Of a DNA stretch of 51,407 bases, positions 39,668-51,407 are shown piece after piece. This DNA is from Clostridia bacterium (GTDB taxonomy: Bacteria > Bacillota > Clostridia > Monoglobales > Monoglobaceae): the NCBI GenBank assembly GCA_017622215.1, contig JAGARO010000003.1, positions 1 through 51,407 of the forward strand. The letters are read 5' to 3'. How positions within the stretch are numbered: position 1 is the stretch's first letter; each line of letters starts with the position of its first letter. Position numbers and translations under genes: made by a program. Below the pieces are notes generated by a model. The model had not been told where the DNA came from. It searched no databases and saw only the letters and a program-made list of their open reading frames with translations.

Positions 39668-39825
39668 ATTTTACGATATTTTTCTCTTGTGGCAATTCCG
39701 CCACGGATATGTCTCTCGTTTTTATTCTCTGTCAGCACCTGACAGACCTGTTTGTGCAGTGCTCCGTTTATCCTGTTAAGACGCTCTGTTACGTCCTTGT
39801 GTACGGTCTGGTGTATTTGTGTCGG
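39652..39825 (-). pseudogene. spoIIID: C-terminal fragment of sporulation regulator SpoIIID, interrupted by an integrative element
   Basis: On the minus strand a frame reads TVHKDVTERLNRINGALH, then RHIRGGIATREKYRK and the stop. It aligns without gaps to the second half of SpoIIID, the mother-cell transcription factor (B. subtilis TVHKDLTERLPEINPDL and RHLRGGEATKLKYKK). It begins in the recognition helix of the HTH: residues expected to read S-K-S before TVHKD are instead I-H-Q, followed upstream by unrelated codons and a stop at 39826-39828. The first ~35 residues are absent. The adjacent serine recombinase indicates site-specific insertion. The fragment has no start codon, so it is non-functional unless the element excises. 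Confidence 0.88.
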
Positions 39826-41419
39826 TTAAAAATGTACCATACATTGGGAAGAATATATCACTGTCAGATGGTGTTGTTTCTGGACTTGTCGGCGGTGTAT
39901 AATCGTCAAAGTCAAGATTAAAATATACATTAATATCTTCTTTTGAATTAATAACAATCTTTTTAATAATCTTTTTTAAATCCGCATTATTTAAACTTTC
40001 GTCAAGATTGATATTATCTAATTCGTCAAAGAATTTCTGCACATTATCTTTTGTTTTCTTTATTAATTCTTTTGTATTGTCTTTCTGTTCAAGTGTGAAT
40101 TTTAATTTTTGAAGTTTGTTATTAATCGGTGTTATTTTTTTTCTTGCTTCGTCCATTGTAATTAATCCATCTGTTGCTAATTCAATATATTTGTCTTTCT
40201 TGCTTTCCAATGCTGAAATTTCATCTTTAATAGAAGAAGTTTCTTCACCCGTTGTTGCTTTAATATAATTTCTTACATATAAATCACATTTTTCTTCTAT
40301 CATCTGATGAAAATTCTCTTTATCAGATAACAAATACTTTAATAATTTTATAATTCCTTCCTTTAACCATTCTTCCTCAATTCTGATATGTTCAGCAGTA
40401 CATCTGCCATTTCCATATGCAGACCTTTTAGAACATACCCACCATATTTTAGGTGCGGTGTTTTCACTATACTTTCTTATGTATCTTCTATATGAAAAAC
40501 CACAACTACCACATTTTATAAGATTAGAAAACAGAAATTTTTCACTTCTTGTACCTTGTGGGAATTTCTCGGCATTTTCTGCTCTGATTTGTTTTGCTTT
40601 ATTAAACTGTTCATCTGATATAATTCTAAATTTTTCTTGATGAACAATATCCCATTCTTCTCGTGGAACTTTAATTCTTGTATGGTCTATTGCACTTTTG
40701 CTACGCTCTTTACCATTACAAACATTACCTATATAAATTTCATTTTCCAGAATTTGACCTACTGTATTTTGAGACCAAGTTCCAGTTTTCATTTTCTTTG
40801 TTTTGTAACCTTGTTCAAAAAGGTATTGTGATATTCGTGGCATACCAATTCTATCTTCGGTGTATAAATTAAAAATCGTCCTTACAATATTAGCTTCATC
40901 TTCATTGATAAACATATTATATTTATCGTTTGGATCTTTATCATACCCAAGAACAAAATTAGGTACAATACCTTTCTTTCTGCTTTCTGCTTTTGTTGCT
41001 CGTGTTCTTTCTGATATATTTTCAGCTTCTTTTTGTGCTAACAGAGATAAGAGGTTTAGTGTGAAACTATCTACATCTGTACCTGCTTGTCCTATGTTTG
41101 TTAAGTGTAGTGAAATTCCCAGATTTGCTAATTCATTATAAAAATTAATTGCATTAAGAGTATTACGGTGTAATCTGGTTTGGTCTTTGCAATAGATTTT
41201 TGTAAATTCCTTTCTTCTTGCAGAAGCCATCATATCGTTATAACCTTTTCGGTTTTTTATTCCAGTACCAGATTTACCCTCATCAGAATAAATCTTAATA
41301 AGAGTATCGCCACGACTTTCTATATATTTCTTTAAATTTTCCTTTTGTTCTTTAAGAGATATTAACTGTTCTTCTTTATTTGTGCTGACTCTTATATATC
41401 CTACTACATTTTCATTCAT
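39776..41419 (-). CDS. Large serine recombinase (integrase) of the spoIIID element
   Basis: A 547-residue large serine recombinase. The resolvase-type catalytic domain starts VVGYIRVST with nucleophile Ser12 and continues with YSDEGKSGTGIKNRKG and KDQTRLHRN. The recombinase DNA-binding domain follows, then a zinc ribbon (KCGSCGFSYRRY, WVCSKRS, GRC) and a coiled-coil (about 420-480). It catalyses integration and excision at att sites. Its last ~18 residues are encoded by spoIIID DNA in another frame, so the C-terminus must change on excision. ATG at 41419 follows AAAGGTAGGAAATA. A strong terminator lies 30 bases upstream of the start. Confidence 0.93.
   Translation of the reverse strand: MNENVVGYIRVSTNKEEQLISLKEQKENLKKYIESRGDTLIKIYSDEGKSGTGIKNRKGYNDMMASARRKEFTKIYCKDQTRLHRNTLNAINFYNELANLGISLHLTNIGQAGTDVDSFTLNLLSLLAQKEAENISERTRATKAESRKKGIVPNFVLGYDKDPNDKYNMFINEDEANIVRTIFNLYTEDRIGMPRISQYLFEQGYKTKKMKTGTWSQNTVGQILENEIYIGNVCNGKERSKSAIDHTRIKVPREEWDIVHQEKFRIISDEQFNKAKQIRAENAEKFPQGTRSEKFLFSNLIKCGSCGFSYRRYIRKYSENTAPKIWWVCSKRSAYGNGRCTAEHIRIEEEWLKEGIIKLLKYLLSDKENFHQMIEEKCDLYVRNYIKATTGEETSSIKDEISALESKKDKYIELATDGLITMDEARKKITPINNKLQKLKFTLEQKDNTKELIKKTKDNVQKFFDELDNINLDESLNNADLKKIIKKIVINSKEDINVYFNLDFDDYTPPTSPETTPSDSDIFFPMYGTFLTDTNTPDRTQGRNRAS
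39800..39830. other. Probable attachment site (attL) of the spoIIID element
   Basis: SpoIIID similarity stops between the codons for Thr/Gln (39805-39810) and the in-frame stop at 39826-39828. The recombinase reading frame crosses this point. The crossover should lie in this interval; the partner site is outside the window, so the core cannot be fixed. Confidence 0.65.
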
Positions 41420-41450
41420 AGTATTTCCTACCTTTCAATAACAACTAAAA

Positions 41451-41489
41451 AAATCTGTTAAGATGTTATAGATACATCTTAACAGATTT
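41451..41489 (-). terminator. Large palindrome/terminator in the recombinase leader
   Basis: A perfect 16-bp inverted repeat (AAATCTGTTAAGATGT and complement) with a seven-base loop is followed on the minus strand by seven T. It sits between the 43-residue gene and the recombinase. It could be a terminator, an attenuator or an operator for recombinase control. Confidence 0.8.
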
Positions 41490-41519
41490 CGCCAGTAAAA
41501 TCAATATGTATTAATGAAT

Positions 41520-41651
41520 TTAATCCTTTTTTACAACCTGTTCAATAGAGATTTCTACTATATGTCTTGCGATCGCAGTCGCTAATACCTCACGAATATG
41601 TTGCTTAATTTGTGGATCAAGTTCATCAATCGTATTTATTTTTTTAGCCAT
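41520..41651 (-). CDS. Small 43-aa protein upstream of recombinase (candidate directionality factor)
   Basis: A 43-residue protein beginning MAKKINTIDELDPQIKQ, predicted helical, with an acidic middle and basic end. The ATG at 41651 is preceded by AAGGAG, which supports translation. It is encoded just before the serine recombinase on the same strand, the usual place for an excisionase or recombination directionality factor. No family is recognised; that role is inferred only from position and size. Confidence 0.6.
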   Translation of the reverse strand: MAKKINTIDELDPQIKQHIREVLATAIARHIVEISIEQVVKKD

Positions 41652-41847
41652 AAATACAACTCCTTATTAAGCATTTAGTAAGTTATTTTGAAGCCATTTT
41701 CTTCAAATTGCCTTACAAGATTATTCTAACATAAAATTTAATTTAATTCATTAAAATTACTCCGTCCAGACGGAATATGACTTTATCTGTTGTTTAAATG
41801 GCTAATTAAATTTAATTATACTAATGTATATTATGGAATTGTATTTA

Positions 41848-42720
41848 TTATTCTTGATTAACCAAAGATTTTAAATCGGTTATCGTAAGAATGTAATCCA
41901 CCGCTTTCTGTGCTTGTGAGCCAGCAGAAATTAATTCTCTGGTATTGTCTTTAAGATGTTTTAACCAACCTCTTATGTAATTGACATCATTATTTGTAGT
42001 GTCCGTGTTTGTATAACCAAACAAAAAACATAAAAGGGAACTACCTAATTGTGCAACTAATTCCTCCTTACTATATTCTTCATTTTCTGTAAATGTGCTT
42101 TTAATTCTGTTGAGCCTTGAACTGTGTCCAGTTGAATGTATTATTTCGTGAAAAGCAGTTGAAACAAAAGAATCAAAATTCTTATATTGTTTTTCACTCA
42201 CTAATACTATTTCATCAAGTAAAGGCGAATAATATGCTTCATCACTTTTTTCAATTCTGATTTTCACCTTTGTTTTTTCAGAATATGTATCAATGATTTT
42301 TTGCACATCTTCCATTCCTTTGTGTTCGTATTCAATGATTTTTTCCTTTGAGGGTAAATTTTCAAAATCATCTGCTTTGAAAAGACGATAGTATTTCAGA
42401 TATGGGATATTTTTAATCTCTCCGCTTTCTTCGTCCTCTACTTCCTTGTAATTAAAATATACACACATATGACTTTTACTGCCTTTTTTCAGATTTACTT
42501 CTGGAAGGTGTTTTTTTATGTCCAGATATTGATTCCAAGTAAGATAGTGTCCAGATTCAAGCAACCAGAGATTTATCCCTGAATATGTCTTTTCACTAAC
42601 ATATGATTTTGGTAATCCTAATTTTTGCCAAGGACAGAGCCAGTTTGAAGTTTCTCCGTTTTCAATCATTTTTTCAACTCGCTCAATCAGGTTGTTTGTT
42701 ATAATTTCGTAAATGTTCAT
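41848..42720 (-). CDS. ArdC-like antirestriction / ssDNA-binding zincin protein
   Basis: A 290-residue protein with an N-terminal ArdC-type domain (WLCPWQKLGLPKSY, GINLWLL, YLTWNQYLDIKKHLPEVNLKKGSK) and a C-terminal zincin metalloprotease-like domain. The HEIIH motif is at 191-195, followed by GHSSRL and an EELVAQLGS segment. ArdC proteins protect incoming single-stranded DNA of plasmids and conjugative elements and may antagonise restriction. It marks this region as a conjugative or mobilizable element. ATG follows GGAATATTACAA, a weak site. Confidence 0.88.
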   Translation of the reverse strand: MNIYEIITNNLIERVEKMIENGETSNWLCPWQKLGLPKSYVSEKTYSGINLWLLESGHYLTWNQYLDIKKHLPEVNLKKGSKSHMCVYFNYKEVEDEESGEIKNIPYLKYYRLFKADDFENLPSKEKIIEYEHKGMEDVQKIIDTYSEKTKVKIRIEKSDEAYYSPLLDEIVLVSEKQYKNFDSFVSTAFHEIIHSTGHSSRLNRIKSTFTENEEYSKEELVAQLGSSLLCFLFGYTNTDTTNNDVNYIRGWLKHLKDNTRELISAGSQAQKAVDYILTITDLKSLVNQE

Positions 42721-42836
42721 TTGTAATATTCCTTTCTTCCTATTTGTTTTTTAACACACTTTGTCCTTTTGTGTTGTTTTTTATATTATATTGTCGGTAG
42801 AAATGGAATATTCAATAAAACAAGATAAAATGTCAG

Positions 42837-42865
42837 GGTATAAAAAAAGCAAGAATCCTTGTCAA
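42837..42865 (-). promoter_or_regulatory. Promoter of ArdC-like gene
   Basis: On the minus strand, TTGACA (42860-42865), 17-base spacer, TATACC (42837-42842). TGTCAG and CTGACA flank it as an inverted pair (42831-42836 and 42868-42873), a possible operator. Confidence 0.55.
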
Positions 42866-42959
42866 TCTGACATTTCTTGTTTGTAAGACATCTTCGTGTT
42901 ATAAAACCCTTTTAATAAAAGTATAGTATATAAAATGTAAAATAAATTTTTGTATCAAA

Positions 42960-43102
42960 CCTTGCCGTTGCAGGTAAAAATAAATTTTTACCACACAAGC
43001 AAAATTGCTTTCAGCACCATATCGCAAGACGATATTATTTTCATTGTTTGCAATTCCCAGATTTAAAAAATCTGGCGGCTGCGGTTTGCTACAAGTAGCA
43101 AA
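42960..43102 (+). other. Cluster of consecutive hairpins upstream of wHTH gene (candidate ori/oriT or structured leader)
   Basis: In about 145 bases there are stems GGTAAAAA/TTTTTACC (42973-42992), AAGCAA/TTGCTT (42997-43010), ATATCG/CGATAT (43019-43035), CCAGATTT/AAATCTGG (43057-43075) and TTGCTAC/GTAGCAA (43086-43101), plus a weaker CCT/AGG stem (42960-42974). None has a T-tract, so these are not terminators. The location before a replication-type gene suggests an origin or transfer origin. Confidence 0.5.
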
Positions 43103-43117
43103 AAGGAGGTGATTTTC

Positions 43118-43708
43118 GTGGGACGAAAATCACATTATATCTTGCCAGACAACTTAAAGTTATCTGACAAGATTTTTATAAACACTTTGCGTTGTGGGGG
43201 TTATGCCACCAGAGAGCAAATTCTTCATTATATTACTGGTAATAGATTAAGGAATTATTGCAACGAAAAAATAATCAGTAAAAACTGGGTTGTTATAAAC
43301 AATAAACCGCAAAGTGTTTATTGTTTTACTGAAAATGGTAAAGAATGGGTAAGAAATAACATTCCCGAACTGTCTGATAGGAAATTTTATTCATCAACTG
43401 GAATAAACCACGATTTAAAACTTTTTGAGCATATACAAAGTTATACAGATAAGCTCTCTTATGAAGAACAATTAAAATTCAGAACAGAATCAGAAAACAG
43501 AGATTTATTTAAGGAACTGTGCAAGGAAATGGAACAAGGTCAATATTATTTAGAACAACTGCACGAACATAATATAAGTATTCCAGATTTCAGTTATGAA
43601 AACGAATATGTCGAAGCTATCACAAATAATTATGGCGATCTTGTAATACAATCAAAATTTGATAGCATGGCGGTTTTAGGCGGAAGTCTCACAATAATTA
43701 AATCTTGA
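43118..43708 (+). CDS. Winged-helix protein, possible replication-relaxation type
   Basis: A 196-residue protein. The N-terminal part (LSDKIFINTLRCGGYATREQILHYI, then a TENGKEWV segment) looks like a winged helix as found in replication-relaxation or mobilization proteins. The C-terminal part is acidic, ending EYVEAITNNYGDLVIQSKF. The GTG at 43118 has AAAGGAGG 8 bases upstream; the frame opens at 43109, but that codon overlaps the ribosome site. It is followed after 14 bases by the next element gene. The function is uncertain. Confidence 0.5.
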   Translation: MGRKSHYILPDNLKLSDKIFINTLRCGGYATREQILHYITGNRLRNYCNEKIISKNWVVINNKPQSVYCFTENGKEWVRNNIPELSDRKFYSSTGINHDLKLFEHIQSYTDKLSYEEQLKFRTESENRDLFKELCKEMEQGQYYLEQLHEHNISIPDFSYENEYVEAITNNYGDLVIQSKFDSMAVLGGSLTIIKS

Positions 43709-43722
43709 GGAGTGATTTTTAT

Positions 43723-44619
43723 ATGGAAGAAATATCAAGCAGAATTGCAAAAGAAACTATTGATAAAAACAAAGATATATTTCATTTGTTAATCTATGGT
43801 TTCGGCGGTATTATTTTTGAAAACCAATTTAAAGAAATTTCAAAGATTAAAAACAATAAATTTTTTAAGTTTTTAGAGGAACAGAAATATATCAAAATTA
43901 CATATCTGGGAAGTAATAAAGTTATTACTGCAAGGAACAAACTATATAACTATTTCGGTCTGGAATACAAAACTGTTAAAATTTCTTGGAAAAGGGTTTT
44001 GCATAGTAGTTTATTAGCAGAGTACATCATAAGGTGTCATTCTGCTGATGAAAGGTACATAAAAAAGTTTTTGCATACTGGTACAATAAGTTTTTATGCA
44101 CCAGAGGACGCTTTGAATTTGATGACAAGAGTACAAGCCCATGCAGAAGAAAAAGCATTAAATACTAAATACCTATCAAGCAGTATAAATGATTTAAAAA
44201 CAAAACTTGATTTTATCAAGCAAAAATGCAAAGGGAATAAAACCAAATTGGAAAAATCAGTTGCCTCTAAATATAATAAAGATATTTTAGCATTAAAGGA
44301 CAGTTGTATATTTATAATGGGTGTCGGTTTTGATGGTAATGACTATGTGTTTGATGTTGCCATATATGCACACTCTTTAAGATTTGACAGATTAATAAAA
44401 CAAATTAATCTTGCAGACAGTTCAATAAGATATGCATTTTTTGGACTACCTATAAAAATTGACATAACACTATATTCGCACTTTGAAGAAAACGAAGCAT
44501 ATACAACCAGAATTAAAGAATACCTGATTTCAGAAGAATATCCTAACAATGTAGATTTTATGTTTTTCAACACAAAAAAGAAATTGTTTTCAGGAATAGA
44601 CATTGATAATTTGTTGTAG
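43723..44619 (+). CDS. Hypothetical element protein, 298 aa
   Basis: A 298-residue basic, Lys/Ile-rich soluble protein with no recognised family. The N-terminal region (IFHLLIYGFGGIIFENQF, FLEEQKYIKITYLGSNK) may be a second winged helix related to the upstream gene. A coiled-coil-like stretch lies at about 150-185. The ATG at 43723 follows GAGGAGTGA. It is co-transcribed with the 196-residue gene, so it may serve replication or transfer of the element. Confidence 0.6.
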   Translation: MEEISSRIAKETIDKNKDIFHLLIYGFGGIIFENQFKEISKIKNNKFFKFLEEQKYIKITYLGSNKVITARNKLYNYFGLEYKTVKISWKRVLHSSLLAEYIIRCHSADERYIKKFLHTGTISFYAPEDALNLMTRVQAHAEEKALNTKYLSSSINDLKTKLDFIKQKCKGNKTKLEKSVASKYNKDILALKDSCIFIMGVGFDGNDYVFDVAIYAHSLRFDRLIKQINLADSSIRYAFFGLPIKIDITLYSHFEENEAYTTRIKEYLISEEYPNNVDFMFFNTKKKLFSGIDIDNLL

Positions 44620-44693
44620 TGTCAAATTTTGTTATATTTTGTGTTTGGTATCAGTAGAATATATTAAACTAAAACACAAAGGAGTAATGAAAT

Positions 44694-44834
44694 ATGTATT
44701 TAACTGCTGATGAAGTTGCTTTTTTAGATTTAATCTACGAAGAAAATTTTGAAAAGGACTACGAGGAATGGATCGCACATATGGAAGAGCAATATTCAGA
44801 AATTAATTCACTAACAGAAAAAGTAGCCATATAA
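44694..44834 (+). CDS. Small acidic protein, 46 aa
   Basis: A 46-residue acidic helical peptide (MYLTADEVAFLDLIYEEN..., ending LTEKVAI). The start ATG is preceded by AAAGGAGTAATGAAAT. A terminator overlaps its stop, so it is a defined transcription unit. Small acidic proteins on mobile elements are often anti-defence or regulatory, but nothing specific can be claimed. Confidence 0.55.
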   Translation: MYLTADEVAFLDLIYEENFEKDYEEWIAHMEEQYSEINSLTEKVAI

Positions 44835-44847
44835 TGACTACTTTTTC
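44817..44847 (+). terminator. Terminator overlapping small acidic gene stop
   Basis: Stem GAAAAAGTAG/CTACTTTTTC with an 11-base loop and T-rich 3' arm. Confidence 0.7.
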
Positions 44848-44919
44848 TACCACCTTTAATACAAAAAAATTAAAATAATAATAATTTTATATAAATAAAC
44901 ACAAAAGGAGCGATTTTTT

Positions 44920-45198
44920 ATGCTAATTACAAAATGCAATTTTTCACCATCAATATATATTGATGAAAACACACTATGTTGTGCAAACATAACTATAAAC
45001 GGATTTATCCATATAAACAGTATTGAGTTATATCGTGATAAAAATCCAATGACTAAAAGAACGGAAGTAGTTGTAGAGTTCCCATCTACTGTTTATATTC
45101 CAGACCAATTTATAAGAAATAATATTAAAGCAGAAATTATTGACCGTTATAATCTCTGGAAAAAATCACCATCATTATCTGCTTCAAAGGGGGTGTAA
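44920..45198 (+). CDS. SpoVG-like protein
   Basis: A 92-residue protein whose pattern (CCANITINGFIHINSIELYRD, VEFPSTVYIPDQF, RNNIKAEIIDRYNLW) resembles SpoVG, a small DNA/RNA-binding regulator. SpoVG-like genes are frequent on clostridial mobile elements. Start ATG follows AAAGGAGCGATTTTTT. The next gene starts 6 bases after its stop, so they form an operon. The family call is tentative because identity is limited. Confidence 0.5.
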   Translation: MLITKCNFSPSIYIDENTLCCANITINGFIHINSIELYRDKNPMTKRTEVVVEFPSTVYIPDQFIRNNIKAEIIDRYNLWKKSPSLSASKGV

Positions 45199-45204
45199 TT
45201 CAAT

Positions 45205-45480
45205 ATGATTGATTTATTTTATGATTTGGACTATGTAAGACATGTTGTTATTAAACAATGTTTTAAAAACGAAGAATTTATTGGTTATGAATGTAGTTTT
45301 TGGCTTGGCAAATTACATATAGAGTTTTCTAATATTCGTTCTTTGGACAATGTTATGGAAAAACTTTCAGCATTTGATTCTTTTATTGAAAATCCAGATA
45401 GCGATTTTAACAGATGTTACGAATTTGATGACTTGTTTAGTGAATTATATAGTTGTGATGATGAAGATGATGAAGAATAA
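45205..45480 (+). CDS. Hypothetical acidic protein, 91 aa
   Basis: A 91-residue protein with mixed beta/alpha character (GYECSFWLGKLHIEFSNI) and a strongly acidic C-terminus (DDLFSELYSCDDEDDEE). No family is recognised. The start is preceded by AAAGGGGGTG. It is translated with the SpoVG-like gene and ends before a bidirectional hairpin. Confidence 0.6.
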   Translation: MIDLFYDLDYVRHVVIKQCFKNEEFIGYECSFWLGKLHIEFSNIRSLDNVMEKLSAFDSFIENPDSDFNRCYEFDDLFSELYSCDDEDDEE

Positions 45481-45503
45481 GCGATATTGCTAACATACAT
45501 AGA

Positions 45504-45528
45504 AAGCACCAGAGGAAATCTGGTGCTT
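45504..45528. terminator. Convergent terminator-like hairpin
   Basis: Perfect 10-bp stem AAGCACCAGA/TCTGGTGCTT with a GGAAA loop, between the plus-strand acidic gene and a small minus-strand gene whose stop abuts it. Confidence 0.8.
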
Positions 45529-45661
45529 AATTTAATGGCTCTATATCTTTATCGTAGTCTTCCTCAATATCATCTTCTAAATTATCATTTAATATATCAT
45601 TTAATAAAGCAGATTCATCTTCTTTACTAAATTTTTTCTTTTTATTAAATTTATTGAACAT
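45527..45661 (-). CDS. Small charged protein, 44 aa
   Basis: A 44-residue protein beginning MFNKFNKKKKFSKEDE and ending in an acidic stretch DIEEDYDKDIEPLN. The start ATG has GGAGG 11 bases upstream. It has no family assignment. Short and strongly split in charge, it could be a regulator or antitoxin-like peptide, but there is no direct evidence. Confidence 0.5.
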   Translation of the reverse strand: MFNKFNKKKKFSKEDESALLNDILNDNLEDDIEEDYDKDIEPLN

Positions 45662-45789
45662 CTTTAGAAGTACCTCCTTATATTTTTCTTTAAAATTCTT
45701 TCAAATCTATATATATAATATATTAAATAAAGATAATTATTACAATTAATAATTGTATTATATAATATATCAAATTATTTTTAATTAAA

Positions 45790-45819
45790 AATGGATTGGA
45801 ATAAAAGCTCCAATCCATT
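45790..45819 (-). terminator. Terminator of stalk-domain gene
   Basis: Stem AATGGATTGGA/TCCAATCCATT with an eight-base loop just past the stop codon on the minus strand, followed by a T-rich stretch. Confidence 0.8.
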
Positions 45820-45832
45820 AATTTTGAATATT

Positions 45833-47302
45833 TCAATTTTCAATTTTTTCAAATACAACAGTGTAACCACCTATTAAATCACCAATAATATATGGCCTTG
45901 AATATTCAATATAAATTTTTTGATTATTTGTTTCTAAAACAAGAATAGTCATTCCAATTTCATTATATGAATTAATAAACTTCAAACCATATTTTTCAAC
46001 ATGCTCCTGATCTATAGTATCAAAAACAATTGGTTTATTATTTTCAAATTTTTTCCATTCTGTATCTTGTGGTACATGAAAATAACCAGAAAAAGTATAA
46101 TAATCAGAAATCATTTTCCAAACTTTTTGACCATTTTCTCCGAGAAAACTATTTAAAAATAATAAAGTATTTTTATTCGCACCCTTTCTTAAAAGACTAT
46201 CATCTTTGTTACCATAAACTCTTTGTCCATAAAAATTACCATAACCAATATCTACATTATCTTGACAAATATAATACAATTTACTATAATCATAAACAGG
46301 AGAAGATGTTATAATTTTATAATATTCTTTGTCTTCCAAATACTTATATAAAAATCTTCCAGAATTTTTTGATTTTCCATATACATATTTATAACCAACA
46401 TTGTTATTGGTTAAATATTCCATTTTATAAATTTTTTCACCATCAGAAGTTTCTATAAATTCAACTTCTTCTCCAGTTTTATCTTCATAAAATTTAGAAA
46501 AATTATTGAAATTTTCTTCTGCTGTATTATTATTAGAAATTTCATATTCCTTTTCATCAGATTCTATTGTAACATTATTTTCTGTAAATCTATAAGGAAC
46601 TAAATTGACAAATTTATTATCTTCAATTTTACCCTTACTTGTATCTACAATAACAATGTTATCATAACCATTTCTTGAAGGATAATCTTTTCCATCAACA
46701 GTTGTAGTATTTGGATATTTTTCATTAACATCAGGGTTTGTTACTTCTGGTTTCTTAGGTTCTTCTTGAATTTCAAAATCAATTGTTTGTTTTCCGATAA
46801 AATTATAATCAACTCTTAATTTTGCCTGATTCCAAACAATATCATAACCAAGTGCATATCCAACAAATCTTGCAGGAATAAAAGTTCTTTCATTTACAAT
46901 TTTTGCTGCAATATCCATCTTTTCTACAGTTCTAAACATAAGAGCACCATTTTTATCACTTAAACCAATGCTAATTTCATTACTTCCAATGATTAAAGAC
47001 GCATGTGCTGTACAATTGAAATATTCTACACCATTATAAACCATTTTTTCGGTTGGTTTATTAATAGTAACGGTACGAGTATCATTATCCCAAAGGACTT
47101 CTGCACCCATTTTTTCTGTAACTGCTCTAACAGGCACTAAAGTTCTATTATTTTCAATGAAAGGCTTAACATCTGCTTCACTAACATATTTTCCATCTAC
47201 ATATACGTAGATTTCATTAGAAGCTGTATTAGCTGATGCATTTATAATAGAAACATTAATCATTGTTACAATTACAAGAACTAAACATAAAATCTTTTTC
47301 AT
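45833..47302 (-). CDS. Secreted stalk-domain (copper amine oxidase N-like) protein
   Basis: A 489-residue exported protein. Residues 1-26 are a signal peptide (LCLVLVIVTMINVSIINASA). Two copper-amine-oxidase-N stalk units follow, with ENNRTLVPVRAVTEKMGAEVLWDNDTRTVTI and later NERTFIPARFVGYALGYDIVW. The remaining ~300 residues are unfamiliar, Asn/Lys/Tyr-rich and without cysteines. Stalk domains probably attach proteins at the cell surface. As cargo of the element it may alter the host surface. The leader GGTAGGAAATATT before the ATG is nearly identical to that of the recombinase gene. Confidence 0.82.
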   Translation of the reverse strand: MKKILCLVLVIVTMINVSIINASANTASNEIYVYVDGKYVSEADVKPFIENNRTLVPVRAVTEKMGAEVLWDNDTRTVTINKPTEKMVYNGVEYFNCTAHASLIIGSNEISIGLSDKNGALMFRTVEKMDIAAKIVNERTFIPARFVGYALGYDIVWNQAKLRVDYNFIGKQTIDFEIQEEPKKPEVTNPDVNEKYPNTTTVDGKDYPSRNGYDNIVIVDTSKGKIEDNKFVNLVPYRFTENNVTIESDEKEYEISNNNTAEENFNNFSKFYEDKTGEEVEFIETSDGEKIYKMEYLTNNNVGYKYVYGKSKNSGRFLYKYLEDKEYYKIITSSPVYDYSKLYYICQDNVDIGYGNFYGQRVYGNKDDSLLRKGANKNTLLFLNSFLGENGQKVWKMISDYYTFSGYFHVPQDTEWKKFENNKPIVFDTIDQEHVEKYGLKFINSYNEIGMTILVLETNNQKIYIEYSRPYIIGDLIGGYTVVFEKIEN

Positions 47303-47407
47303 AATATTTCCTACCTTCCTGCCATTCCGTTTAAGTTTGCGATTTTGCTCCGAAATGACACCTTACATATTATTATAATACAATTACCCCATAAAGTCAA
47401 TAAATTG

Positions 47408-47427
47408 TGCAAACAAAACTGTTTGCA
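47408..47427. promoter_or_regulatory. Candidate operator palindrome
   Basis: TGCAAAC/GTTTGCA arms separated by six bases lie in the divergent region between the stalk-domain gene and the ribbon-helix-helix gene. A dyad in this place is typical of autoregulation by such DNA-binding proteins. Confidence 0.45.
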
Positions 47428-47488
47428 ATTTGTGTTCTTATATAAATGGTTTTTTAGTGTTAAAATAGACTTATGAGGTGATTGCACT

Positions 47489-47698
47489 ATGAATAATAAG
47501 TCTAATAAATTTGTTATAACACCAAAAACAGAACGATCAATTACAATGACTATAAGACTTGAAACTGAACTTAATAATCGGATAGAAGAAATAGCCAGAA
47601 AAAGCGGACGCTCAAGAAATGAATTGATTAATAAAGCGTTAAAATTTGCTTTTGATAATGTTGAATTTGATACTGGCGATGATGTTTCTTCTAAATAA
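47489..47698 (+). CDS. Ribbon-helix-helix (CopG/Arc-like) DNA-binding protein
   Basis: A 69-residue protein with a ribbon-helix-helix core: strand SITMTIRLETEL, helix NNRIEEIARKSG, turn, and helix SRNELINKALKFAF. It probably binds DNA as a dimer. It could be a transcriptional repressor or a partition/antitoxin-like regulator. The ATG follows GAGGTGA. It has its own terminator. Confidence 0.82.
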   Translation: MNNKSNKFVITPKTERSITMTIRLETELNNRIEEIARKSGRSRNELINKALKFAFDNVEFDTGDDVSSK

Positions 47699-47711
47699 TT
47701 GTATTAAGCTG

Positions 47712-47737
47712 ACGGATTGTTTTTCAATCCGTTTTTT
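47712..47737 (+). terminator. Terminator after RHH gene
   Basis: Stem ACGGATTG/CAATCCGT with a T-rich loop and six T. Confidence 0.9.
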
Positions 47738-47866
47738 CATTTTAAAATATTATAACATAAAAACACTAATAAATAATTTTTTACCAAAACTATCAAACAC
47801 TTTTTTTGAATTATTTATTTTCACGGTTTGTATAATTTATTATAAACAAATTGGAAGTGGTGATAA

Positions 47867-48982
47867 ATGTATTCAAGTACAACAATTCATATCAAAAATT
47901 TATCTGCAGGTGATGTGAAAACCTTAAATAAGTTATCAAGTATGATTGCCGAGCTTTACAATAACTGCATAAATTTTATTAAAAGCAATTATGAAAATAA
48001 TAATTATATTCCTGATGATGTTTCTTTGTATAGGGAAATGTCAAAAACAACTGCATTCTCTGATTTGGGTAAATCATATGTTTATACATTGAATATAGCA
48101 ACACAGAATTTTAAAACAAGTATTAGAAATCACTTGAATTTACCAAATAGCCAGAAACAATATCACGGAATAACCTTAAAGGGTAATGAAGCACACGGAA
48201 CATATATAAAAATACCATCAACCAAATACACAAAAGAGTTAATAATACCGATTCCGCCGATTTATCAAAATCTTGAAGTCAGCATATTTCATATAAAGCG
48301 TTGTTCTGCTGATTACTGGGAATTGATTTTGACTTATAAATGCAACTTGCAAATACCAGATTTCAAAAAAGTAAATTTTGTTGGTGTTGATTTAGGTCTT
48401 GAAAATCTTATAACCGCAGTATGCAGTAATGGAAATACTGTTATTTTTGATGGTAGAAAGTGCAAATTTATACACTATCAAAAACAGAAAGCAACATCAA
48501 AAAAACAATATTACAGATTACGAAACCAAATGACCGATTATATAAATAAGGTCATAAATGCTTTTATTCAGTTTTGTATTGAAAATGAAGTTAAAACAGT
48601 TTTGGTAGGTAATGGATTTTCAAGATATTATCGTGAGGGATATATGGATAAATATTGTAAAGCTATTCCTTATGATGATTTACAAACAAAATTGAAAGAT
48701 AAATGTTTAAAGTATGGTATTAAACATTATATAACAAGTGAATGTTATACAAGTAAAGCAAGTTTTCTTGATAATGACATTACACCTCTGGATCTGCGAG
48801 GAACAAAAAAATTTAGCGGAAAACGAAAAAAACGAGGGGTATATGTTTCAAAAGACGGATATATTCTAAATGCTGATGTGAATGGAGCGTATAACATCTT
48901 AAACCATTCACACGAATGTGATTTAAGCCATCTGCAAAAAAATCCTAAATTAATAAAGCAACCGAAAAGGATTAGATTTTAA
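47867..48982 (+). CDS. tnpB: TnpB-family RNA-guided nuclease with rearranged RuvC site
   Basis: A 371-residue IS200/IS605 OrfB protein. RuvC-I Asp175 is in VGVDLGLENL and RuvC-III Asp337 is in LNADVNGAYNIL. At the canonical RuvC-II position, where VED-type motifs hold the catalytic Glu, this protein has VLVGNG (Gly248). A Glu occurs instead at 292 in SECYTSKASFL, which fits the TnpB clade with a relocated catalytic Glu. The usual CxxC zinc finger is not evident. TnpB cuts DNA guided by a reRNA from the element end. The ATG follows GGAAGTGGTGATAA. Confidence 0.9.
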   Translation: MYSSTTIHIKNLSAGDVKTLNKLSSMIAELYNNCINFIKSNYENNNYIPDDVSLYREMSKTTAFSDLGKSYVYTLNIATQNFKTSIRNHLNLPNSQKQYHGITLKGNEAHGTYIKIPSTKYTKELIIPIPPIYQNLEVSIFHIKRCSADYWELILTYKCNLQIPDFKKVNFVGVDLGLENLITAVCSNGNTVIFDGRKCKFIHYQKQKATSKKQYYRLRNQMTDYINKVINAFIQFCIENEVKTVLVGNGFSRYYREGYMDKYCKAIPYDDLQTKLKDKCLKYGIKHYITSECYTSKASFLDNDITPLDLRGTKKFSGKRKKRGVYVSKDGYILNADVNGAYNILNHSHECDLSHLQKNPKLIKQPKRIRF

Positions 48983-49081
48983 TGTGAGAGCATTTCAGCC
49001 GACACAGTATAAGGTTTGCCACCTTAACGGCATAGCAAATCCAACTAATTATCCAAGCAGAAATGCTTGGGTATTTTTTTT
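48870..49081 (+). ncRNA. Probable reRNA (omega RNA) of the TnpB element
   Basis: In TnpB elements the guide RNA comes from the 3' end of tnpB and the right end of the element. Here about 70 bases of non-coding sequence after the stop (48983-49052) contain several short stems. A stem CCAAGCA/TGCTTGG with a GAAA loop (49053-49070) and eight T follow. Boundaries and the guide cannot be determined from sequence alone. Confidence 0.4.
49053..49081 (+). terminator. Hairpin with T-tract after tnpB
   Basis: Stem CCAAGCA/TGCTTGG with GAAA loop, then GTA and eight T. Confidence 0.8.
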
Positions 49082-49315
49082 GTCTGTTTTTAGTAAGACA
49101 CTTTAAAATTATAATTTCAAGTTGTGCCATATAAGATATAAAAGAATTAAATTTGATGGAATAGAAAAAATCCTCTTGGGGATAAAAGAGAGAATTTAGA
49201 TTTTTTATATTCTTTCTTCCATTTAAGTTTTGTATTCCATATCAGGATTTAATTTATTCCATTCAGTTTAAATTCTATTTATTCCATATTTAAGATAAAG
49301 GAGATGTAATCTATA
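49082..49315. other. AT-rich intergenic region with iteron-like repeats
   Basis: No gene is visible. TATTCCAT occurs at 49233-49240, 49255-49262 and 49280-49287, and its reverse complement ATGGAATA at 49156-49163. The spacings of 22 and 25 bases approach two helical turns. With the primase-like gene directly downstream, this may be a replication origin of the excised element. Confidence 0.45.
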
Positions 49316-50326
49316 ATGAATCTAAATCTATTAAAGATGATTAAAGAAAACAATTTACCAAAAGCATATTTTGATGAAATGCAAAGATCAAAGATGAGAA
49401 ATGTTAATATTGCTTCATTTGTAAAGTGGTATGATAACTCACTAATTATATATGAACGAGGTAATGCAAGATTAAGAGAAAATCCATCAGTAGTATTAAA
49501 TGATGTTTGGGCGAGAGATTTTACTACTGGTGAATCTTATACTGGAATTGATTTTTGCATAAAGTATCTGGGGTTAAATAAGTATGCTTCAATGTATGTC
49601 CTTAATGAGTTTTTGAAATCTGGTAATAATACCGCAGAGCAGAAAAAACCAATGCTACCAATTTCAGAAGTTGAAAGAAAAATTAATGATGGTACATATA
49701 TTTCAGCAAGAGGTATAAAACAGATTTATGCTTATCTCTGCAAAACAAGAAAAATAAGTCCTGATGTTGTAAAAACCTTTATAGACAAAGGGTATTTATA
49801 TGCTGAATGTTTAGAAAAAGGATATAATCTACTCTTTCCAATATATAATGATGAAGATATAATTTCTGGCTTTGAAAGAACTGGAATATTATCAAGCAAT
49901 AATCACAGATTCAAAGGGTGTATTATTACAGAAGAATATAGCGGTTTTACATATGTATATCAGCATATTCCAAACACAAAAGAAACAATAATTGTATTTG
50001 AGTCTTCCATTGACATAATGAGTTTTTTAACATTGATAAATGAGGGTAAAATTACAATGGATTTTGATTCTACTGTTGTTCTGGTTTCTTTAAGAGGTGT
50101 GCAAGAGAAGATTTTAAACAAGTATAACAAAGGTAAGGTCTATTTTGCAGTTGATAATGATGATGCTGGGTTGGAGTTTTACAGAAAAAATTTTAATTCA
50201 GGGAATTCTGATTCAACTCCAACTTGCAGTTTACAAAAATATAATTGTAAAGATTGGAACGAATTATTGCAGAAAAAGGACATTATTAACGAAACTATAA
50301 ATATTAGTAATAAACTTCCGTTTTAA
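49316..50326 (+). CDS. DUF3991/Toprim primase-like protein
   Basis: A 336-residue protein of the DUF3991-Toprim type found on conjugative elements. The N-terminal part has a pattern typical of DUF3991 (RENPSVVLNDVWARDFTTGESYTGIDFCIKYLG and ISPDVVKTFIDKGYLY). The C-terminal Toprim domain has IIVFESSIDIMSF (conserved Glu), VYFAVDNDDAG (DxD) and KDWNELL. It may make primers for element replication or transfer. The ATG follows AAAGGAGATG. The iteron-like repeats upstream support a replication role. Confidence 0.85.
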   Translation: MNLNLLKMIKENNLPKAYFDEMQRSKMRNVNIASFVKWYDNSLIIYERGNARLRENPSVVLNDVWARDFTTGESYTGIDFCIKYLGLNKYASMYVLNEFLKSGNNTAEQKKPMLPISEVERKINDGTYISARGIKQIYAYLCKTRKISPDVVKTFIDKGYLYAECLEKGYNLLFPIYNDEDIISGFERTGILSSNNHRFKGCIITEEYSGFTYVYQHIPNTKETIIVFESSIDIMSFLTLINEGKITMDFDSTVVLVSLRGVQEKILNKYNKGKVYFAVDNDDAGLEFYRKNFNSGNSDSTPTCSLQKYNCKDWNELLQKKDIINETINISNKLPF

Positions 50327-50378
50327 ATTCTTATAAAAATAATTATTATAATGTTTTTTGACAAAATCAGCAAAAAAA

Positions 50379-50407
50379 TTGATTTATAAGGAAAAATATG
50401 TTATAAT
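50379..50407 (+). promoter_or_regulatory. Promoter of DUF4116 gene
   Basis: TTGATT (50379-50384), 17-base spacer, TATAAT (50402-50407) with extended TG. Confidence 0.65.
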
Positions 50408-50439
50408 GTTTTTAAGAACTTTTGAAAGGAGTTTTATAA

Positions 50440-50973
50440 ATGGAAAGAGAAATTAAATATTATGATTATGATGAGGCTATTGAAGCTATAAACGAGGATA
50501 TTTCTGAAATTCAATATTGTGCAGATGAATTGTTTGACGATGACGAAATACATAACGATTATTTATTTAACAATGGCGAGGTTTTAAAATATCTTCCTGA
50601 TTATTTAAAGGCTGATGATGGTGCGGTTAGAAATGCTATCTACAATGATGGTTCTGCTATCCAGTACGCTTCTGATGAATTTAAAAGCAATAAAATTTTT
50701 GCCCTTATTGCAATTACCAATGATCCTTGTTCTATTGAGTATTTTTCAGAAGAAATAAAAAGTGATGAAATGTTAGCACTTACTGCTATAAGACTTAATA
50801 ATTATGCTATCAATTACATATCCTTAAAGTTATTATCAGATTTAGACTTTTTGAAACAAAAACTTTTCTGGGTAGATCATACTGCACCAGAAGTATTAAA
50901 AGATAGTATAATTAAAGAAGTTAAAAAAATCAACAAAGGAGCTGCAATGTGGTTAAGCTCTTGGGGAGATTAA
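50440..50973 (+). CDS. DUF4116-repeat protein
   Basis: A 177-residue acidic protein with helical repeats of the DUF4116 kind: DGAVRNAIYNDGSAIQYASDEFKSNKIFALIAITNDPCSIEYFSEEIKSDEMLALTA... shown here only to note the recurring A-I-x-N-(D/N) and Y-x-S-x-E pattern. The function of the family is unknown. It is often on mobile elements and in protists or giant viruses. The ATG follows AAAGGAG. It is monocistronic with its own promoter. Confidence 0.75.
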   Translation: MEREIKYYDYDEAIEAINEDISEIQYCADELFDDDEIHNDYLFNNGEVLKYLPDYLKADDGAVRNAIYNDGSAIQYASDEFKSNKIFALIAITNDPCSIEYFSEEIKSDEMLALTAIRLNNYAINYISLKLLSDLDFLKQKLFWVDHTAPEVLKDSIIKEVKKINKGAAMWLSSWGD

Positions 50974-51267
50974 AATTTTTTCAATTTTATGTTATATTTT
51001 GTAAAGTTTTGCATATAGTATATTAAGGGGTTGGAAAACCCCTTAATGTAATACATATTTGAGTCCTATTTGTGTAAGCAAATAACAAGGGTAGGAAAAC
51101 GAATTGTAGGAAACAAAGAGGTAGGATTTCTGCTATCACCACCCCGAAAGGGGTGTTTAAATAAAAATGGTAGGAATATTAAATGGAATGCACCGCCAGA
51201 CTTTTGTCTGGCGGTGATTTTTTTATTCCCAAGAGTTATAAAATACTGTGTATTCGTCAAAATTCGT
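50974..51267. other. Non-coding right part of element with hairpins and GTAGGA repeats
   Basis: No credible gene is seen. It holds hairpins TTAAGGGGTT/AACCCCTTAA (51023-51046) and ACCCC/GGGGT with GAAA loop (51141-51154). GTAGGA occurs four times (51091, 51106, 51121, 51170), the first three exactly 15 bases apart. A strong terminator follows at 51191-51224. Regular repeats plus hairpins suggest an origin, oriT or a structured RNA. Confidence 0.5.
51191..51224 (+). terminator. Strong terminator near right end
   Basis: Perfect 11-bp stem CACCGCCAGAC/GTCTGGCGGTG with a TTTT loop, followed by ATTTTTTT. No coding gene precedes it for over 200 bases, so an upstream non-coding transcript is possible. 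Confidence 0.9.
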
Positions 51268-51407
51268 GGCAGTGTGAGAAATTTTCTGTAAATTCAATTT
51301 TTCTATGATAAAATATTCAAATTTTATGGGCGGGAACAGCCAGATTATGGCTTTCCTGCCTAATTGCAATATAGCACGGAATTTTTGCCATGTCAAGGGC
51401 GCCCTCG
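51268..51407 (-). repeat. Right copy of 140-bp inverted terminal repeat
   Basis: Exact reverse complement of 2-141. The promoter lies at 51391-51396 (-35) and 51368-51373 (-10), directed leftward into the window, followed by the hairpin at 51329-51360. It lies in or at the end of the spoIIID element. Confidence 0.95.

What the first reader, a model, noticed from the sequence alone, without database searches (positions are those of the whole stretch)
47867..49081. TnpB with a relocated RuvC-II glutamate and a likely reRNA downstream
The canonical catalytic Glu position holds Gly248 (VLVGNG), while a Glu appears at 292 (SECYTSKASFL). RuvC-I Asp and RuvC-III Asp are intact. This fits TnpB lineages with a rearranged active site, and raises the question whether it is an active nuclease or a repurposed RNA-guided binder. 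No TnpA is present.
Basis: partly seen in the sequence, partly recalled or inferred. Interest (0 to 1): 0.58.

Follow-up and report, generated by a model that had tools for sequence, protein, structure and literature searches.

The report
Orphan TnpB with relocated catalytic glutamate
This is a lone, probably still active RNA-guided DNA-cutting enzyme (TnpB) whose moved catalytic glutamate is shared by a whole known branch of the family; the unusual part is that its gene ends in a transcription terminator instead of the guide-RNA end normally found there.

Summary
The relocated glutamate is real but already known. Gly248 sits at the canonical RuvC-II position and Glu292 at the alternative one. 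Of 123 distinct aligned relatives (window included), 120 have Gly/Glu at these two sites and the other 3 have Glu at the canonical site instead. This is the published D-Phi-G/Ealt clade of TnpB (PMC10711439). An AlphaFold2 model (pLDDT 89.6) gives a complete TnpB/Cas12f/Fanzor2 fold, with Glu292 directly after the fifth RuvC strand, where Fanzor carries its glutamate. I could not measure distances in the model. The best reading is a nuclease-competent orphan TnpB in a 28%-GC integrative element, not a dead binder. A covariance model of the relatives' right-end RNA matched 37 of 53 held-out relative loci but nothing in the window or genome, and the feature at 49050-49081 is an intrinsic terminator found after only 3 of 127 such ORFs. 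The genome has no Y1-type TnpA and no second TnpB. So it is a new, divergent member of a known kind; how its guide is made is open.

The parts
47867..48982 (+). tnpB ORF, 371 aa, stop included
   Evidence: Pfam OrfB_IS605 43.3 bits and Cas12f1-like_TNB 32.1 bits, both over cut-off; AlphaFold2 pLDDT 89.6 with full TnpB/Cas12f fold
48389..48391 (+). Asp175, RuvC-I catalytic Asp in a D-L-G motif
   Evidence: invariant in A1; D in 121 of 123 distinct aligned rows
48608..48610 (+). Gly248 at the canonical RuvC-II glutamate site
   Evidence: G in 120 of 123 rows, E in the other 3; opposite the Glu of Cas12f chains; end of strand 242-249 in the model
48740..48742 (+). Glu292, alternative RuvC-II glutamate (Ealt)
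   Evidence: E in 120 of 123 rows; first residue after strand 286-291 in the model
48875..48877 (+). Asp337, RuvC-III catalytic Asp
   Evidence: D in 121 of 123 rows; in helix 336-348 of the model
48983..49049 (+). 3' untranslated stretch, no reRNA shown
   Evidence: no hit with model R1 above background; fold z-score -0.90
49050..49081 (+). intrinsic-terminator-like hairpin (10 bp, GAAA loop) plus T8
   Evidence: of 127 tnpB ORFs with 160 nt downstream only 3 have such a site, window included
47489..47698 (+). small ribbon-helix-helix (CopG/Arc-like) gene with its own terminator-like site at 47711-47733; neighbour, link to tnpB not shown
39776..41419 (-). large serine recombinase at the border of the AT-rich element that holds tnpB
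   Evidence: Resolvase, Recombinase and Zn_ribbon_recom domains; G+C falls from about 0.41 to 0.29 here

Best explanation
A TnpB-family RNA-guided DNA nuclease of the known D-Phi-G/Ealt clade. Shown: intact ORF, complete predicted fold, and a conserved triad Asp175-Glu292-Asp337 in which Glu292 takes the place of the lost canonical Glu. Inferred: with a suitable right-end-type RNA it binds metal and cuts DNA as other TnpBs do. The gene stands alone in an integrative element, without TnpA, without the lineage's recognisable right end, and with its own terminator. It is therefore most likely an orphan descendant of an IS-borne tnpB, carried as cargo of the element. Where its guide comes from is unknown.
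For: Two Pfam TnpB models over cut-off. Full-length fold matches to Cas12f, ISFba1 TnpB, mimivirus Fanzor2 and ISDra2 TnpB: Z 20.0-23.4 over 299-331 residues for ranks 1, 9, 12 and 13. Mutual exclusion of the two glutamate positions: 120 rows Gly/Glu and 3 rows Glu/not-Glu among 123; among the 48 genome and plasmid rows, fetched without use of the YTS motif as a search pattern, 47 are D-G-E-D and 1 is D-E-R-D. Glu292 follows the strand 286-291, the place that PMC11423790 (passages) gives for the Fanzor glutamate. PMC10711439 (one section and passages) defines this Ealt site and a D-Phi-G/Ealt clade. Only TnpB in the genome, no Y1 TnpA, terminator.
Against: NCBIfam guided_TnpB scores 83 bits, under its cut-off of 100, while six of six relatives scanned pass it. 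The window differs at 6 of 31 columns that are at least 90% conserved in the clade, among them the KSINxxYNK helix and the NNQxF stretch after RuvC-II. No coordinates of the model could be read, so the Glu292-Asp distances were not measured. No activity has been tested, and I found no activity data for a bacterial D-Phi-G/Ealt TnpB in the passages read.
Confidence: 0.78

Rival explanations
1. Repurposed, non-cutting RNA-guided binder (TldR-like).
For: Orphan gene in a mobile element, no transposon ends or TnpA found, neighbouring ribbon-helix-helix regulator gene.
Against: All three catalytic carboxylates are kept although the rest of the protein is only 22-33% identical to the relatives of A1. 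TldRs are, by name, nuclease-dead.
Confidence: 0.08
2. Decaying relic of an IS: the protein is still open but the ends and reRNA are already lost, so it has no present function.
For: No right-end match, no TnpA, long branch, six conserved columns changed, single copy.
Against: Open frame with intact triad; a well-formed terminator close behind the gene looks like a maintained transcription unit rather than a ruin.
Confidence: 0.25
3. Ordinary IS-borne TnpB with a diverged right end: the hairpin at 49050-49073 is the last reRNA hairpin and the guide starts in the T-run.
For: Relatives end in a hairpin followed by TTCA or GTCAA, several of them with GGGTA between; the window hairpin also ends in GGGTA and lies at a similar distance from the stop. 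Model R1 also misses 16 of 53 held-out relative loci, so a miss is not proof.
Against: The T8 tract makes it a terminator; the region scores at background with R1; no second copy of these ends in the genome and no left-end hairpin other than the neighbour gene's terminator was seen.
Confidence: 0.25

Closest known systems
D-Phi-G/Ealt clade of bacterial TnpB (PMC10711439, Nucleic Acids Res 2023)
   Same: RuvC-I motif D-L-G; glutamate at the alternative site; TnpB domain order
   Different: The first zinc-finger Cys is Ser299 here (also Ser in 105 of 123 rows, window included); no right end or TnpA; protein short and divergent
IS200/IS605 TnpB (ISDra2, solved as 8exa/8h1j) and IS607 TnpB (ISFba1, 8iaz)
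   Same: Fold over 299-320 residues, Z 20.0-21.0
   Different: ISFba1 uses E290 with D194 and D371 (PMC11061315 passages), the canonical site by spacing; such TnpBs sit in elements with reRNA-bearing ends
Fanzor (mimivirus Fanzor2 9b0l; SpuFz1)
   Same: Fold (Z 20.1 for 9b0l) and glutamate between the fifth strand and the TNB domain (PMC11423790 passages)
   Different: Fanzors carry DPG in RuvC-I (PMC10711439); the window has DLG
TldR, nuclease-dead TnpB-like repressors (PMC13418256, search listing and start of abstract only)
   Same: TnpB-derived, carried by a mobile element
   Different: The window keeps the catalytic triad
Bacillus phage G gp662 (locus L121)
   Same: Ealt TnpB whose gene is followed by a terminator-like hairpin; no R1 match
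   Different: 413 aa, in a phage genome, over the NCBIfam cut-off

Membership tests
TnpB protein family | OrfB_IS605 and Cas12f1-like TNB domains | tested here: met
   43.3 and 32.1 bits against cut-offs 30.5 and 26.3
TnpB protein family | NCBIfam guided_TnpB cut-off | tested here: not met
   83 bits against 100; a naming threshold rather than a structural criterion
TnpB protein family | WED/REC plus RuvC fold as in solved TnpB/Cas12f | tested here: met
   Z 20.0-23.4 over 299-331 residues for 8j1j, 8iaz, 9b0l and 8exa
D-Phi-G/Ealt clade | D followed by a hydrophobic residue and G in RuvC-I | tested here: met
   Asp175-Leu-Gly177
D-Phi-G/Ealt clade | Glu six residues before the first zinc-finger Cys | tested here: met
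   By alignment: Glu292 is in the Ealt column and residue 299 is in the Cys column; the Cys itself is Ser here, so the paper's literal pattern would not match
pro-Fanzor/Fanzor | DPG in RuvC-I | tested here: not met
   DLG
TldR | Loss of RuvC catalytic residues | tested here: not met
   D175, E292 and D337 present
IS200/IS605 or IS607 element | TnpA transposase | tested here: not met
   No Y1_Tnp match in the held genome (93.6% complete); the only recombinase seen in the window's element is a large serine recombinase 6.4 kb away; small serine TnpA not searched genome-wide
IS200/IS605 or IS607 element | Right end that encodes a reRNA scaffold | tested here: inconclusive
   No match of R1, which finds 37 of 53 held-out relative loci; no credible Rfam match
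RNA-guided nuclease (function) | reRNA binding and guided DNA cleavage | not testable with these tools
   needs RNA sequencing and cleavage assays

The most novel reading that the evidence does not exclude
A mobile-element-encoded Ealt TnpB that has been uncoupled from transposition: its transcript ends at a dedicated terminator, so its guide is not read from flanking DNA as in an IS but is fixed inside the 67-nt 3' stretch or supplied in trans, making it a dedicated RNA-guided nuclease of the integrative element (for example against rivals or empty attachment sites). Phage G gp662 may be a second case.
Probability: 0.12. Interest if true: 0.6.

Novelty: new member of a known kind. Interest (0 to 1): 0.25.

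Why it matters
The relocated glutamate itself is in print, so it adds one divergent member. What is worth keeping is a nuclease-competent TnpB with a terminator in place of the right end: if it does have a bound RNA, it would show TnpB domesticated as a nuclease rather than as a dead repressor.

Tried and rejected
Closer relatives: none among 37 other same-family and 13 other same-order genomes. A single-protein scan of genome contigs gave only L002, which on inspection is a peptidase-like ORF, not a TnpB, and was discarded. A single-protein scan of viral contigs gave nothing. The best full-length relatives are about 30% identical.

Empty site: the flanking Toprim gene gave only 25-28%-identical homologues in 5 other genomes and no viral match; DNA of 47303-50330 matched no plasmid. 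Ends and TAM therefore stay undefined.

Guide target: own-genome matches to 48960-49320 are short and AT-rich (best besides itself E 0.001, not next to the hairpin); two that overlap the T-run were read and judged chance. No repeat array was found in the element.

Tree: quick LG tree only; the query is a long branch joined with another long branch, so its place inside the clade is unsure. The idea that the short helix after RuvC-I (73 residues from D175 to G248) ties it to the 8 viral rows with the same length was not borne out by that tree.

Caveats on counts: one search's patterns include the YTS motif, so the viral rows are biased towards Ealt; the 48 genome and plasmid rows are not. Before the count, 9 of 137 hits under 250 aa were dropped and 5 duplicates merged. 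Only 80 of the 398 viral candidates were kept by the tool.

Literature: no paper matched 'TnpB' with 'RuvC-II', 'rearranged', 'catalytic' or with 'RuvC', 'glutamate', 'nuclease-dead'; the looser searches gave the papers cited. The PNAS 2023 classification of TnpB that I recall as also describing rearranged catalytic sites is not held and was not seen.

Full report
Observation. The ORF at 47867-48982 encodes 371 residues. It carries OrfB_IS605 and Cas12f1-like_TNB domains over their cut-offs, but stays under the NCBIfam guided_TnpB cut-off (83 against 100 bits). It is the only TnpB in the held genome (1.18 Mb, 93.6% complete), and that genome shows no Y1 transposase.

The glutamate. In alignment A1 (20 sequences) D175, G248, E292 and D337 are invariant. 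In a wider set, 137 profile hits were reduced to 123 distinct ORFs of at least 250 aa (9 short hits dropped, 5 duplicates merged). Of these, 120 have Gly at 248 and Glu at 292; the remaining 3 (L056 and second ORFs on L072 and L073) have Glu at 248 and none at 292. Because the viral scan used a pattern containing the motif, I counted the 48 genome and plasmid rows apart: 47 are D-G-E-D and 1 is D-E-R-D. A profile search of PDB sequences places the family Gly opposite the catalytic Glu of Cas12f and Glu292 opposite a Pro.

It is in print. PMC10711439 (section 23 read whole, other passages seen) names the two positions Ecan and Ealt, puts Ealt six residues before the first zinc-finger Cys, and reports a D-Phi-G/Ealt clade of TnpB beside the DPG/Ealt clade of pro-Fanzors and Fanzors. 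Glu292 to residue 299 is that spacing; residue 299 is Ser here, as in 105 of 123 rows. The window has DLG, hence the first clade.

Structure. AlphaFold2 with a 58-sequence alignment gave mean pLDDT 89.6 and pTM 0.84. G248 lies in the strand 242-249, E292 directly follows the strand 286-291 and D337 lies in the helix 336-348. PMC11423790 (passages) describes the catalytic glutamate on the loop between the fifth strand and the TNB domain, which is the same place. Foldseek and VIA-align match the whole chain to AsCas12f, ISFba1 TnpB, mimivirus Fanzor2 and ISDra2 TnpB.

Divergence. The closest full-length proteins are about 30% identical and the window is a long branch (1.46 changes per column). 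From D175 to G248 it has 73 residues against a median of 91; 8 other Ealt rows are as short. It differs at 6 of 31 columns that are at least 90% conserved: residues 95, 203, 205, 261, 264 and 347. The triad is untouched. That contrast argues for kept catalysis and against a dead binder, though not conclusively.

The reRNA claim. Relatives carry a conserved right end that overlaps the 3' end of the gene: a GC hairpin, the AAGAATAAGG...CTTCTT stem with covariation (8 of 13 pairs with compensatory changes), and a final hairpin before TTCA or GTCAA. A covariance model R1 from 24 such ends finds 37 of 53 relative loci not used to build it, at E under 0.01 (which searched 55 relative loci, 2 of them training loci, out of the loci then held). 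In the window its best hits are at background level, and none marks 49050-49081 as a right end; it has no match in the whole genome. The 16 misses show that a negative is not proof. The window instead has a 10-bp hairpin with a GAAA loop and T8. A scan of the 160 nt behind 127 ORFs finds such a site in 3: the window, L121 (Bacillus phage G gp662 by coordinates) and L068, which also has an R1 match. The stretch between stop and hairpin folds little better than shuffles (z -0.90); with the hairpin included z is -2.94. A likely reRNA is therefore not supported; a terminator is.

Setting. From about 39.7 kb the G+C falls from 0.41 to 0.29, starting with a large serine recombinase and an ArdC-like protein. 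The tnpB lies in this putative integrative element between a ribbon-helix-helix gene with its own terminator-like site and a Toprim/DUF3991 gene. The contig ends at 51407, so the other border is not seen.

Verdict. A nuclease-competent, orphan TnpB of a known clade. Known kind, divergent member. The open question is its guide.

Noticed in passing
L072:58-1185 and L073:27-1154: Two viral contigs carry, beside an Ealt TnpB, a 376-aa TnpB-like protein (TNB domain) whose RuvC-I Asp reads Ala (GLALG) and whose RuvC-III Asp also looks lost, with the canonical Glu kept: a candidate nuclease-dead TnpB/TldR-like protein.
   Followed up: partly
L121:3720-3800: Bacillus phage G gp662, an Ealt TnpB, is followed by a terminator-like hairpin instead of a right end.
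   Followed up: partly
window 39700-51407: AT-rich (about 28% G+C) putative integrative element with serine recombinase, ArdC-like, Toprim/DUF3991 and DUF4116 proteins and several ORFs without any family match.
   Followed up: partly
window 41415-41434 and 47298-47317: A 20-nt leader sequence, 95% identical, spans the start codons of two unrelated minus-strand genes of the element (recombinase and a copper-amine-oxidase-N-like protein), perhaps a shared regulatory site.
   Followed up: no
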